A stretch of DNA of 64,000 bases from assembly GCA_029237605.1 (NCBI GenBank), contig JAQRGB010000001.1, forward strand, positions 1 to 64,000, given 5' to 3'. Shown in pieces: positions 1-62,638 of this stretch. The stretch comes from Candidatus Thiodubiliella sp. GTDB lineage: Bacteria > Pseudomonadota > Gammaproteobacteria > PS1 > Pseudothioglobaceae. The position numbers and the translations under genes were made by a program. A model generated the notes under the pieces. That model saw nothing but the letters and a program-made list of their open reading frames with translations, had not been told where the DNA came from and did not search any database. Numbering within the stretch: the stretch's first letter is position 1; every line of letters starts with the position of its first letter.

Positions 1-1
1 A

Positions 2-33
2 TTGTCTTCCTAAGACCGCTTGGCCTCCGACTT
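2..33 (-). other. Sequencing-adapter remnant (DNBSEQ adapter 1)
   Basis: Reverse complement of the 32-nt adapter that begins AAGTCGGAGGCCAAGCGGTC and ends GAAGACAA. The same sequence recurs at 2216, 4269 and 62417. It sits immediately upstream of the obgE ribosome binding site, so whatever preceded obgE (often rpmA) is cut off or replaced here. It is an assembly artefact. Confidence 0.93.
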
Positions 34-51
34 GAGGGAGTTTGTATAATT

Positions 52-1066
52 ATGAAATTTGTTGACTCTGCATCAATTCGTGTTGAAGCTGGCAAAGGTG
101 GTGCAGGATGCTTAGGTTTTCGTAGGGAAAAATATATTCCTGATGGTGGGCCTGATGGTGGTGATGGTGGTGATGGTGGTGATGTGTATTTTTGCGGACA
201 AGAAGGGTTAAATACACTGAGTGAATTTCGTTTTAATCGCTTGTTTAGGGCGAGAAATGGACAACCTGGGCAAGGACAAAATAAACGCGGTAAGTCAGCC
301 CAACATTTGATAGTTGAAATACCACTTGGTACTAAAATTTATGATTCAGAAACCGATGAATTAATTGCTGAGATGGTCAAGCACAACCAAAAGATACTGG
401 TCGCTAAAGGCGGTTTTCATGGCTTGGGCAATACGCGTTTTAAATCTAGTACTAATCGTGCGCCACGTAAAACCACATCAGGATCATTGGGTGAGGTGCG
501 TGAAATCAATTTAGAAATGAGCGTTATGGCAGATATAGGCTTATTAGGTATGCCGAATGCTGGCAAGTCTAGCCTTATTAGGCAGTTTTCCAGTGCACAA
601 CCAAAGGTGGCTGATTATCCGTTTACTACTCTTCATCCGTCATTGGGCGTGGTATCATATTATGATGAACATATTGTCATGGCAGATATTCCTGGATTAC
701 TAAAAGATGCCAGCAAAGGTGTGGGTTTAGGATTTGAGTTTTTAAAACATTTGTCTCGTACTAAGGCGTTATTACATATATTAGACGTAATGCCAGCTGA
801 TGGATCTAACCCAGTGAATAACTTCTTAACTATTGAGAGCGAACTAACAAAATACGATCAAGAAAGTCGGATCGTAGCCATGTCGTTCTGTGATTAATAA
901 AATAGATTTGTTGCCAAAAGATGAGCGTATAACAGTTACTGCTAAAATTGTAAAGGCGATTAAGTATAAAGGTGAAGTGTTTTGTATTTCATCGTTAAAC
1001 GGCTTAGGTTGTAAGAATTTAATAAAAGGAATTTTTAAATTAACAAAAGAATTTAGTAATGAATAA
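52..1066 (+). CDS. obgE: GTPase Obg/CgtA, reading frame broken by an adapter
   Basis: Obg-family GTPase involved in late 50S ribosome assembly and stress control. The N-terminal glycine-rich Obg fold ([12 protein letters not shown] near residues 32-43) is followed by a G domain with P-loop GMPNAGKSS at about residue 166 and a DIPG switch motif. The frame runs clean to codon 271, where adapter sequence (864-893) replaces about ten codons and shifts the frame. The protein resumes at 893 with INKIDLL, the G4 motif of Obg proteins, and ends FSNE at 1066. Without this correction it looks like a 281-aa truncated protein. The start at 52 has a GGGAG motif upstream. The last 8 nt overlap proB. The gene is almost certainly intact in the organism. 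Confidence 0.9.
864..893 (+). other. Sequencing-adapter remnant (DNBSEQ adapter 2) in obgE
   Basis: First 30 nt of the adapter beginning AAGTCGGATCGTAGCCATGT. It lies between codons for YDQE and INKID of obgE, where other Obg proteins have about ten more residues. It therefore replaces rather than adds sequence, and it changes the frame. Confidence 0.94.
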
Positions 1067-1828
1067 AAGATGGGTAATTAAAATAGGTTCGGCTCTATTA
1101 ACTAATGACGGCAAAGGTTTGGATAAAATTGCCATTACTACGTGGGTGGAGCAAATTAGCGAACTTAAACGACAAAATGTAGATGTAGTTTTGGTATCTA
1201 GTGGTGCTATAGCTGAGGGTGTGAAACGCCTTAGTTGGAGTGAGCGCCCAGAGAGCATTCATCAGCTACAAGCTGCTGCGGCCGTTGGACAAATGGGATT
1301 AGTACAAACTTATGAATCTTTATTTTCTAAACAAAATATACACACTGCACAAGTTTTACTTACTCATGGTAATCTCGCTAATACAGAGCAAAGTAACAAC
1401 ATTAGCGCTACACTAGATGCTTTATTAACATTAGATACTGTACCAATTGTCAATGAGAATGACACTGTTGCCACGGATGAAATTAAGTTTGGCGATAACG
1501 ATACTTTAGCGGCATTAGTGACAAATTTAATTGGTGCAAATCAATTGGTTATTTTAACTGACCAAGGTGGTGTATATGACGACGATCCACGACAAAATAT
1601 CAACACTAAACTAATTAATAAAATTCATGTAAATGATAAAAAGCTAGAGCAAGTTGCTAGCAGAATTGGCGGATCATTAGGTTCTGGCGGCATGTATACT
1701 ACAACTCCTTGGCTCACAGAACGACATGGCTACGATCCGACTTTACTATTATTGCATCAGGTAGAACTAATAGCGTGCTCACGCGCTTATATGCGGGTGA
1801 AGCTATTGGAACCTTAATACATTGTTAG
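1059..1828 (+). CDS. proB: Glutamate 5-kinase, C-terminus frameshifted by an adapter
   Basis: Phosphorylates glutamate in the first step of proline synthesis. The amino-acid kinase fold is clear: N-terminal KIGSALLT, then VSSGAIAEG, NENDTVATDEIKFGDND and LTDQGGVYDDDP. After GSGGM at about codon 210 an adapter (1702-1743) replaces native sequence. The last family-like stretch, TIIASGRTNSVLTR to LIHC, lies in another frame and ends at 1828. No PUA domain follows, so this is the short kinase-only form (about 255 aa, against 367 in E. coli). It overlaps obgE by 8 nt and folK by 7 nt, suggesting one coupled operon. The uncorrected frame stops at 1817. Confidence 0.9.
1702..1743 (-). other. Sequencing-adapter remnant (full adapter 2) in proB
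   Basis: All 42 nt of adapter 2 in reverse orientation, inside proB after the GSGGM motif. The proB frame differs on either side of it. Confidence 0.95.
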
Positions 1829-60206: not shown

Positions 60207-60987
60207 ATGAATATCTTAAAATCATCTCTAATTCATTTAAAAGCAAAAAACGGTTTTGATTCGGCAGCAGTTCTAGCATTTTCTACACTATTTGCGATTG
60301 TTCCAATGCTAACTTTGGTATTTGGTGTATTTTCCTTATCATCATATTTTTATGATTTACAACAGTATTTAGAAAAATTTTTGTTTGAACACTTATTACC
60401 AAAAAATTATGAAGTTGTCAGTCAATACATTCATCAGTTTATTATTAGTGCACAAAAACTTAAAGGTGTGAGTGCTATGTTTTTGCTATTTGCAACAATT
60501 TTTTTATTTCGTGAAGTAGATCACCGTATTAGCTCAGTATGGGGGTAAAAGAATTCGTCGTTTTGGACTAGAATTATTAATATATTTATTAGTATTGACC
60601 TTGGGTCCATTATTTCTAGCAGGGTCTTTATTTATAAGCTCATATTTGAGTGCTTCAAAATTATTTTTATTCGTCCCAATGGGAGGGATTTTTGTATCTG
60701 GGTTACCAATTATTCTTTCATCAATTGGACTTAGCTTGCTATATTATTTTATACCGATCGAAAAAATAATTTTCAAAGATGCAATCAAGTCAGGTTTTAT
60801 TGTGGCATTCTTTTTAGAAGCCCTAAAGTCTATTTTACTCATTTATATTAACTATTTTCCGATGTATGAATTGATTTATGGCGCTCTATCAACATTACTT
60901 TTGTTTATGCTATGGGTTTATTTTTCTTGGGTATTAGTATTATTCGGTGCTAGCGTTAGTTTTTGTTTATATCAAAAAGAGGGTTAA
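60207..60987 (+). CDS. YihY/BrkB family membrane protein, frameshifted
   Basis: Inner-membrane protein of the former 'RNase BN' family, with about six helices. The N-terminal part ends at 60548 after RISSVWG. The rest reads RIRRFGLELLIYLLVLTLGP to the end at 60987, one frame away. Removing one G from the G5 run at 60540-60544 restores VWGKRIRRF; this is the only break here that looks like an overcall. Function of the family is unknown. ribE starts 3 nt downstream. Confidence 0.85.
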
Positions 60988-60990
60988 AGA

Positions 60991-61581
60991 ATGTTCACAG
61001 GTATTATTCAAGCCATAGGCCAAGTTAAAAACAAGGTCACACATGACAAAGGCGCAATCTTTACCTTTTCCTCAAGTATATTTGATTTTTCTACGATAGA
61101 TATTGGTAACAGTATTGCGGTAAATGGTGTGTGTTTAACAGTCATTGAAGTTGAAAATGAAAATTTTACAGCGGATATATCTCAAGAAACACTAAATTTC
61201 TCTATTTTGGGAAATCTATTGATTGATGATGAAATAAATCTTGAAAAAGCCATAAAGTTTAATCAGGGCATCGATGGGCATTTGGTTAGTGGGCATGTGG
61301 ATGGAAGAGGTCAAGTTATTGATAAAACTATAGAAGGTGAGTCAACACGTTTTAAAATAAATGCGCCACAGTCTTTGGTAAAATACATTGCCAGGAAAGG
61401 TTCAATTACTGTGAATGGCGTAAGTCTAACAGTAAATAGTATTAAAGCAAATGTATTTGACATTAATATTGTGCCACATACATTGACAGTGACTACATTG
61501 GGACAATTAAAAGTAAGTGACAGCGTTAATTTAGAAGTAGATATTATCGCTAAATACCTTGAGCAGTTAATAACAAAATAA
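60991..61581 (+). CDS. ribE: Riboflavin synthase alpha chain
   Basis: Dismutates 6,7-dimethyl-8-ribityllumazine to riboflavin. Two lumazine-binding repeats are visible: [12 protein letters not shown] with [10 protein letters not shown], and [15 protein letters not shown] with [11 protein letters not shown]. 196 aa is typical. It is first in a riboflavin operon with ribBA and ribH. The frame is intact. Confidence 0.95.
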
Positions 61582-61583
61582 AA

Positions 61584-62638
61584 ATGAAAGCTAAATCTAA
61601 TATTAAAGAGATATTAAAAGATTACAAACAAGGTAAGATGATTATCTTAATGGATAATGAAAATCGTGAAAATGAAGGAGATTTAATTATTCCTGCAGCA
61701 ACTTGTACCAAAGAAAATATTAATTTTATGGCAACACATGGCAGAGGTTTAATTTGTTTAACCCTTACCCAAGAACGCTGTAAGCAATTAAATTTACCAC
61801 TAATGGTTACTCAAAATAATGATATCAATGCTACTAATTTTACCGTTTCTATTGAGGCTTCTGAAGGTCTCTTACAACTCCTTGGCTCACAGAACGACAT
61901 GGCTACGATCCGACTTGGGCAAAAACTGTGTTAAGTGCCGTAGCACCAAATGCTAAACCTACTGATATTGTACAACCAGGGCATATTTTTCCATTAATGG
62001 CACAACCTGGCGGTGTATTGATTCGCCCAGGCCACACCGAAGCAGGTTGTGACTTAGCGCGTCTTGCAGGCTTTGAAGCATCATCAGTGATTGTTGAGAT
62101 TTTGAACGATGATGGCTCAATGGCGCGTCGTGATGATTTAGAATTTTTTGCTGAACAACATGATATTAAATGGGGCACAATTGAAGACTTGATTTCCTAC
62201 CGTGTAGAAAATGAAAAAACTATTAAACGTATTGGTGAGCGACTATTTAGCAATAAATACGGTGAATGGACGATGGTGTTATTCTTAGATAGTATTCACC
62301 AGCAAACACACACAGCCTTAGTAAAAGGCAGCATTAGCAAAGATGTGCCAATTTGTATACGTGTGCATATGGAAAATACGTTTATCGATATCTTGCAAGA
62401 AAATACTAAATCTCTAAAGTCGGAGGCCAAGCGGTCTTAGGAAGAACGAAATGGTGTATTTTTGCTTATTCGTCCACATGAAGCCAGTAGTGATGTTAAA
62501 ACTTATGGTGTAGGTGCTCAAATATTATCTGATTTAGGCGTTGGTAAAATGCGTATTTTAGGTAACCCGAGAAAGCTAAATGCTTTAAATGGCTTTGGCT
62601 TAGAAGTGGTTGAATATATTACAAACCATACAAAATAG
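61584..62638 (+). CDS. ribBA: RibBA: DHBP synthase with GTP cyclohydrolase II-like domain, two adapters
   Basis: The N-terminal DHBP synthase has [16 protein letters not shown] near residue 20 and [10 protein letters not shown]. An adapter with part of the index (61866-61916) breaks the frame. It resumes [20 protein letters not shown] with [14 protein letters not shown]. The C-terminal part ([12 protein letters not shown]) is interrupted by a second adapter (62417-62445), then [11 protein letters not shown] and [20 protein letters not shown] end at 62638. The zinc-binding cysteines of active GTP cyclohydrolase II are not visible, so this domain may be inactive, as in many gammaproteobacterial RibBA-like proteins. 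Corrected length is about 355 aa. Confidence 0.92.
61866..61916 (-). other. Adapter 2 with nine bases of the 10-nt index
   Basis: All 42 nt of adapter 2 in reverse orientation (61875-61916), preceded by GGTCTCTTA (61866-61874). These nine bases equal the end of the index seen at 2248-2257. The first three (GGT) could also be native ribB codon sequence. Confidence 0.94.
62417..62445 (+). other. Sequencing-adapter remnant (adapter 1, 29 nt) in ribBA
   Basis: First 29 nt of adapter 1, placed between codons for ENTKSL and NGVFLL of ribBA and changing the frame. Confidence 0.94.

What the first reader, a model, noticed from the sequence alone, without database searches (positions are those of the whole stretch)
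1..62445. A dispersed 42-bp / 32-bp 'repeat family' at 16 sites is sequencing-adapter contamination, not a mobile element
Two sequences, beginning AAGTCGGATCGTAGCCATGT and AAGTCGGAGGCCAAGCGGTC, recur in full or part at 2, 864, 1702, 2216, 3684, 4269, 10781, 15079, 26665, 27924, 31379, 41017, 42328, 49766, 61866 and 62417. They are near-identical, in both orientations, and often inside essential genes. From memory they match the MGI/DNBSEQ library adapters. Many end at variable truncation points, as read ends would. Anyone seeing these as novel repeats or as a recombination system would be misled.
Basis: partly seen in the sequence, partly recalled or inferred. Interest (0 to 1): 0.85.

Follow-up and report, generated by a model that had tools for sequence, protein, structure and literature searches.

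The report
Sequencing adapters left in an assembly
The repeated 42- and 32-base sequences are leftover MGI sequencing adapters written over real genes during assembly, not a biological repeat, and anyone using this genome's genes near them would be misled.

Summary
All 16 sites are present, and the two sequences equal the 42- and 32-nt BGISEQ/MGI adapters letter for letter as printed in PMC10788357. Three findings go further. (1) In the whole genome 22 places read forward adapter + 10 bases + start of the reverse adapter half; the 10 bases take eight values, as sample indexes would. (2) The adapters replace native DNA: at the 11 of 16 window sites that could be tested, relatives carry 25-52 native bases (site medians) where the window has 29-52 adapter bases. 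(3) Orientation alternates along the contigs (129 of 154 neighbours; 79 expected); the 62 segments bracketed by outward-pointing adapters are all at least 511 bp with tails, while 15 of 64 of the other kind are under 500. This fits untrimmed short-read contigs (cut-off about 500 bp) stitched into a longer backbone; that step is inferred. The genome (1.33 Mb, related to Bathymodiolus sulfur symbionts) holds 225 copies by 14-mer; 11 congeners hold none (20-mers). Not a biological feature; low interest, but a clear warning about this genome record.

The parts
2..33 (-). F adapter, complete 32 nt, at the first bases of contig C1, upstream of obgE
   Evidence: identical to the string printed in PMC10788357
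864..893 (+). R adapter, 30 nt, inside obgE (Obg/CgtA GTPase); the ORF stops at 897; 29 native bases here in 11 of 11 relative loci counted
1699..1743 (-). R adapter, 42 nt plus 3 nt that agree with index CACTTAGCTA (the 3 nt may be chance), inside a proB-like glutamate 5-kinase gene; 43 native bases in 4 of 4 relative loci counted
2216..2265 (+). F adapter 32 nt + index GGGTCTCTTA + first 8 nt of the reverse adapter half, at the 3' end of folK (HPPK); 52 native bases in 6 of 6 relative loci counted
3677..3725 (-). R adapter 42 nt + 7 nt of index CACTTAGCTA; the TTG start listed for the panC ORF at 3725 uses the adapter's last base; replacement not testable here
4269..4300 (+). F adapter, 32 nt (one or two further bases may be index or native), inside panC; 25 native bases in 3 of 3 relative loci counted
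10781..10795 (-). F adapter, 15-nt tail, no ORF of 150 aa here, upstream of a tRNA; replacement not testable
15079..15129 (+). R adapter 42 nt + 9 nt of index CACTTAGCTA; no listed ORF of 150 aa or more here; replacement not testable
26656..26706 (-). R adapter 42 nt + 9 nt of index GGTAGAGAGT, over the 3' end of a fabH-type gene (ACP_syn_III); 52-68 native bases in 7 relative loci
27924..27964 (+). R adapter, 41 nt, inside plsX (gene on the - strand); 33 native bases in 11 of 11 relative loci counted
31379..31416 (+). R adapter, 38 nt exact, inside lptD; 29 native bases in 2 of 2 relative loci counted
41008..41058 (-). R adapter 42 nt + 9 nt of index ATTGGCAACT, inside a CDP-alcohol phosphatidyltransferase gene; replacement not testable
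42328..42379 (+). R adapter 42 nt + full 10-nt index GACCTGATAA; ilvD is in two ORFs here (42299-42766 and 41233-42345); 45 native bases in 10 of 10 relative loci counted
49766..49795 (+). R adapter, 30 nt, inside htpG (HSP90); 30 native bases in 11 of 11 relative loci counted
61866..61916 (-). R adapter 42 nt + 9 nt of index GGGTCTCTTA, inside ribBA; 31 native bases in 14 of 14 relative loci counted
62417..62445 (+). F adapter, 29 nt, inside ribBA; 35 native bases in 10 of 10 relative loci counted; ORF 61928-62440 is left as a fragment

Best explanation
The repeats are the two MGI/BGISEQ (DNBSEQ) library adapters, read through at the ends of short DNA inserts and never trimmed (shown: sequence identity, 10-nt index, other adapter half after the index). 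Untrimmed short reads were assembled into contigs of at least about 500 bp whose ends carry outward-pointing adapter tails (inferred from the alternating orientation and the lower length limit). Those contigs were then placed whole into a longer backbone (long-read gap filling or scaffolding, a hybrid assembly), so each tail overwrote a stretch of native DNA of roughly its own length (replacement shown at 11 window sites; the long-read step is inferred). The damage in obgE, proB, folK, panC, fabH, plsX, lptD, ilvD, htpG and ribBA is therefore an artefact, not gene decay. Confidence: adapter origin above 0.99; embedded-contig step about 0.75.
For: Letter-for-letter identity to printed BGISEQ-500 adapters (35 papers hold one of the strings). 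22 places with F adapter end + 10 nt + CAACTCC, eight distinct 10-mers, reversed-pattern control 0. 67 of 74 complete tails run at least 3 nt into one of eight indexes (the list came from the same tails and one base was guessed, so partly circular; one search is the unbiased form). Own genome 141 + 84 copies; 1 of 398 phylum genomes, the own one, holds the R 25-mer; 0 of 11 congeners hold the F or the R 20-mer. Replacement at 11 of 11 testable window sites (of 16), mean tail 41.0, mean of native medians 36.7 (alignments). Alternation 129 of 154, permutation mean 78.8, sd 6.2, 0 of 20,000 as high. '-...+' segments: shortest 511 bp with tails, 0 of 62 under 500, 18 of 62 at 500-700; '+...-' segments measured the same way: 15 of 64 under 500, 5 of 64 at 500-700 (Fisher P 2.5e-5, with a limit chosen after seeing the data). 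Contigs C1, C3, C23, C34 and C42 have adapter within their first 6 bases. In other records the R 42-mer sits at record ends: 1 E. coli and 4 phages, 5 of 5 within 260 bases of an end.
Against: No raw reads could be examined. 25 of 154 neighbouring pairs do not alternate, which needs contig ends without a tail. The two kinds of segment have similar medians (1,078 and 1,259 bp); only the short end differs. Most of C1 is nearly free of adapters (3 copies between 100 and 566 kb, none beyond 604 kb), so one history does not cover the contig evenly. R copies outnumber F copies (141 to 84), which I do not explain. The frame-indel comparison agrees with the model but is weak: 0 frame-breaking indels in 4,118 aligned coding bases of '-+' segments, 53 in 23,820 of the others, many in compensating pairs against diverged relatives. 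The index strings were not found in a printed MGI list (four of the strings searched, six papers listed, none evidently such a list by title, none opened).
Confidence: 0.93

Rival explanations
1. A real dispersed repeat, small mobile element or recombination site family of the symbiont.
For: Near-identical copies in both orientations in many parts of the genome.
Against: Identical to commercial adapters; followed by eight index-like 10-mers and the other adapter half; replaces DNA rather than adding to it; absent from 11 congeners and, as the R 25-mer, from 397 other genomes of the phylum; in E. coli and phage records found only near record ends, 5 of 5.
Confidence: 0.003
2. Adapter artefact, but made by consensus polishing: a long-read assembly was polished with untrimmed MGI reads, and adapter bases won where short-read depth was one or two.
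For: Also predicts replacement of nearly equal length with small indels and outward-pointing adapters at the edges of covered islands.
Against: Does not predict a lower limit near 500 bp on the bracketed segments or contigs that begin in adapter; aligners normally soft-clip 30-50-nt tails (recalled).
Confidence: 0.15
3. Adapter artefact from a short-read-only assembly, with scaffold gaps of estimated size closed by reads that end in adapter.
For: Gap closing also keeps approximate distance.
Against: A 703-kb contig is long for short reads alone (recalled); '+...-' stretches run to 12 kb, beyond what read-pair gap closing bridges (recalled), unless several contigs without tails lie within them.
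Confidence: 0.1

Closest known systems
BGISEQ-500/MGI library adapters (forward AAGTCGGAGGCC..., reverse AAGTCGGATCGT...)
   Same: Both strings identical over 32 and 42 nt to those printed in PMC10788357 (passage seen); order adapter - 10 nt - other adapter half, as expected of read-through of an indexed library (expectation recalled).
   Different: No difference seen; eight index-like 10-mers occur in one assembly, so the library or co-assembly was multiplexed.
Adapter remnants at record ends in public genomes: E. coli NZ_CP121294.1; phages PQ358089.1, PQ374146.1, OR188719.1, OR188720.1
   Same: Same 42-mer, 100% identity; in E. coli a RefSeq CDS (P9N54_RS00005) starts inside the adapter.
   Different: One place per record, near a record end; in the window's genome 225 copies by 14-mer, most of them inside contigs.
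Hybrid metagenome assemblers that assemble short reads first and join contigs with long reads (e.g. OPERA-MS)
   Same: Would place whole short-read contigs, tails included, into a scaffold (inferred); the workflow and a contig-length parameter were seen in passages of PMC11458758 and PMC10987132 (set to 1000 there).
   Different: Which program was used is unknown; a default of 500 bp is recalled, not checked.

Membership tests
MGI/BGISEQ adapter read-through | Exact adapter sequence | tested here: met
MGI/BGISEQ adapter read-through | Begins at adapter base 1 and is cut only at the 3' end | tested here: met
   16 of 16 window sites; no adapter 11-mer elsewhere in the window
MGI/BGISEQ adapter read-through | 10-nt sample index followed by the other adapter half | tested here: met
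   22 places, eight 10-mers, reversed-pattern control 0
MGI/BGISEQ adapter read-through | The 10-mers are indexes on the manufacturer's list | tested here: inconclusive
   no list held; paper search for four of them gave no evident list
MGI/BGISEQ adapter read-through | Strings vanish when reads are trimmed | not testable with these tools
   no reads held
Biological dispersed repeat or mobile element | Insertion adds length at the target | tested here: not met
   a native span is replaced at 11 of 11 testable sites; 5 of 16 not testable
Biological dispersed repeat or mobile element | Present in related genomes | tested here: not met
   0 of 11 congeners for either 20-mer; 1 of 398 phylum genomes for the R 25-mer, the own one
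Embedded short-read contigs in a hybrid assembly | Outward-pointing tails that alternate along contigs | tested here: met
   129 of 154, 0 of 20,000 permutations as high
Embedded short-read contigs in a hybrid assembly | Minimum segment length set by a contig cut-off | tested here: met
   0 of 62 under 500 bp (shortest 511), against 15 of 64 for the other segments
Embedded short-read contigs in a hybrid assembly | Lower accuracy in the stretches between embedded contigs | tested here: inconclusive
   0 in 4,118 against 53 in 23,820 coding bases, but many indels compensate each other

The most novel reading that the evidence does not exclude
The case shows a quiet failure mode: when untrimmed short-read contigs are embedded in a longer backbone, adapter tails replace native bases at roughly equal length, so assembly length and gene order look normal while about 225 places in a public symbiont genome are synthetic and the library's indexes stay readable. 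No paper describing this pattern stood out in the listings (listings only, nothing opened), which is a thin search.
Probability: 0.6. Interest if true: 0.25.

Novelty: not a real feature. Interest (0 to 1): 0.12.

Why it matters
Repeat finders, gene-loss studies and protein catalogues would all be misled: ilvD and ribBA look broken, the listed panC ORF gets a false start codon, and recurrent adapter peptides (for example KSDRSHVVL and [14 protein letters not shown], translations) could enter protein databases, as an adapter already has at the start of a RefSeq E. coli CDS. In a reduced symbiont genome such breaks could be mistaken for pseudogenes (inference). The orientation and minimum-length test is a simple way to look for embedded, untrimmed contigs in other genomes.

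Tried and rejected
Considered and rejected: mobile element, recombination site or CRISPR-like repeat (adapter identity, indexes, replacement rather than insertion). Simple joining of read ends in mid-genome: would not keep native spacing or give a lower limit near 500 bp. A single sample index: my first reading used only GGGTCTCTTA; the unbiased extraction gave seven 10-mers bounded on both sides and the genome pattern search eight.

Led nowhere: a literature search for four index strings; IMG/VR (0 stretches with the R 33-mer) and plasmids (no match to the R 42-mer); a search for a source paper (listing only). The indel comparison was too confounded to weigh much. GC does not separate adapter-rich from adapter-poor stretches (0.330-0.347); ORF cover is somewhat lower in adapter-rich ones (0.684-0.766) than in four adapter-free samples (0.755-0.901), ranges that overlap.

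Rows dropped: the alternation test used contigs C1, C3, C12 and C23 only, 158 of 225 sites, because the R listing was cut at 100 rows. Segment lengths come from 155 sites in fetched stretches, of which 1 with a tail under 12 nt was left out; C3, C34, C41, C42, C44 and the last 5 kb of C23 were not measured. Replacement could be tested at 11 of 16 window sites: one has no left flank and for four no relative locus aligned on both sides; within the 11, relative loci whose flank alignments stopped more than 15 nt short were dropped. The less strict count, which kept them, gave some larger spans at 1700, 2216 and 31379 (up to 111), where the flanks were poorly aligned.
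Full report
WHAT IS THERE. Each begins at base 1 and is cut only at its 3' end; no other 11-mer of either occurs in the window. The whole genome holds 73 + 68 copies of the R 14-mer and 42 + 42 of the F 14-mer, and none of the same patterns read backwards.

IDENTITY. PMC10788357 (passages seen) prints both strings, letter for letter, as the BGISEQ-500 adapters given to its trimming program. Thirty-five open-access papers hold at least one of the two strings searched, the R string shortened to 32 letters (20 listed).

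INDEXES. After a complete F adapter the genome often continues with ten bases and then CAACTCC, the reverse complement of the end of the R adapter. A genome-wide search for this layout with the ten bases left free gave 22 places and eight different 10-mers: TCCTTTTGTA 6, GGGTCTCTTA 4, GGTAGAGAGT 3, TGACTAGACC 2, GACCTGATAA 2, GTCCAAACAG 2, CACTTAGCTA 2, ATTGGCAACT 1; the reversed pattern gave 0. This is the structure of an indexed library molecule. Of 74 complete adapters in the stretches I fetched, 67 run at least three bases into one of the eight (partly circular, since the list came from these tails). In the window an index is visible in whole or part at 2216, 3677, 15079, 26656, 41008, 42328 and 61866. 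Of 11 embedded segments with an index call at both ends, 9 carry two different ones, so several indexed libraries, or one multi-index library, went into one assembly.

NOT BIOLOGICAL. Among 398 genomes of the phylum the R 25-mer occurs only in the window's own, and none of 11 congeners has the F or the R 20-mer. The R 42-mer occurs in 1 of 5,426 E. coli genomes and 4 of 50,697 phage records, each time within 260 bases of a record end, and in no plasmid record. In the E. coli record a RefSeq CDS starts inside the adapter.

REPLACEMENT, NOT INSERTION. At 11 of 16 window sites relatives align on both sides. By site medians they carry 25-52 native bases where the window has 29-52 adapter bases; for example 29 against 30 in obgE (11 of 11 loci), 30 against 30 in htpG (11 of 11), 31 against 51 in ribBA (14 of 14) (alignments). 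An insertion would leave no native span to replace. The other 5 sites could not be tested. A looser count gave the same picture at well-aligned loci and some larger spans where flanks were poorly aligned.

HOW IT AROSE. In contigs C1, C3, C12 and C23 (158 sites) neighbouring copies point in opposite directions in 129 of 154 cases; shuffling orientations within contigs gives 78.8 on average (sd 6.2), and 0 of 20,000 shuffles reach 129. Adapters point away from the insert, so '-...+' brackets DNA that came from adapter-bearing reads. The 62 such segments are 511 bp or longer with their tails, and 18 of them lie between 500 and 700 bp; of 64 '+...-' segments measured the same way 15 are under 500 and 5 lie between 500 and 700. 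The medians are similar (1,078 and 1,259 bp), and the limit was chosen after seeing the data, so the P value of 2.5e-5 is a guide only. Contigs C1, C3, C23, C34 and C42 have adapter within their first 6 bases. The simplest account is short-read contigs with a cut-off of about 500 bp, assembled without adapter trimming, then placed whole into a backbone bridged by long reads or scaffolding. Hybrid assemblers of the OPERA-MS type assemble short reads first (passage in PMC11458758) and have a contig length threshold (passage in PMC10987132); that 500 is a default is recalled. Consensus polishing with untrimmed reads is the main alternative. A check on accuracy found 0 frame-breaking indels in 4,118 coding bases of '-...+' segments and 53 in 23,820 of the rest, but many of the latter come in compensating pairs, so this is only suggestive.

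CONSEQUENCES. Twelve of 16 window sites lie within or over the end of a coding region: obgE, proB-like, folK, panC, fabH, plsX, lptD, a phosphatidyltransferase gene, ilvD, htpG and ribBA twice; that several are essential is general knowledge. ilvD and ribBA are in pieces, and the panC start listed by the ORF caller uses an adapter base.

THE ORGANISM. The best named relatives of its PanC are from the Bathymodiolus azoricus thioautotrophic gill symbiont (68% identity), Candidatus Vesicomyosocius (55%) and Candidatus Thioglobus pontius (53%), so it is very likely a sulfur-oxidising gammaproteobacterial symbiont or a close relative of one. The genome has 1,325,184 bases in 44 contigs and is 90.68% complete.

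VERDICT. Confidence that these are MGI adapters is above 0.99; confidence in the embedded-contig mechanism is about 0.75.

Noticed in passing
G000 contig C1 (703,197 bp), 100-566 kb and 604-703 kb: Adapter copies are very uneven: 24 in the first 100 kb, 15 in 566-604 kb, 3 between 100 and 566 kb and none beyond. The contig may combine parts with different assembly histories or depth.
   Followed up: partly
window 11107-11353: Tandem repeats with a period of 20-21 nt (AGTTACCCTTTATCCGTAATT, 6.4 copies in the longer array), iteron-like, in a stretch without long ORFs after a tRNA.
   Followed up: no
window 12466-14274: ORF with a match above Pfam's cut-off to the last third of the TraG_N profile (42.9 bits, cut-off 36.1); it and the tandem repeats lie in one adapter-bracketed segment (10795-15079), so this may be a mobile element or a misplaced contig. 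The stretch 14300-16300 matched only 4 of 11 congeners, each in short pieces.
   Followed up: partly
E. coli NZ_CP121294.1, 4801815-4801856: A chromosome called complete has an MGI adapter 23 bases from its end; RefSeq CDS P9N54_RS00005 (WP_278233994.1) starts inside it and runs across the record's origin.
   Followed up: partly
Phage records PQ358089.1, PQ374146.1, OR188719.1, OR188720.1: The 42-nt MGI adapter lies within 260 bases of one end of each record.
   Followed up: partly
G000 contig C12 (L296-L304): The fetched sequence of C12 holds 103 N: a remaining gap or a withheld stretch; not located.
   Followed up: no
whole genome G000: R adapter copies outnumber F copies, 141 to 84 by 14-mer; not explained.
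   Followed up: no
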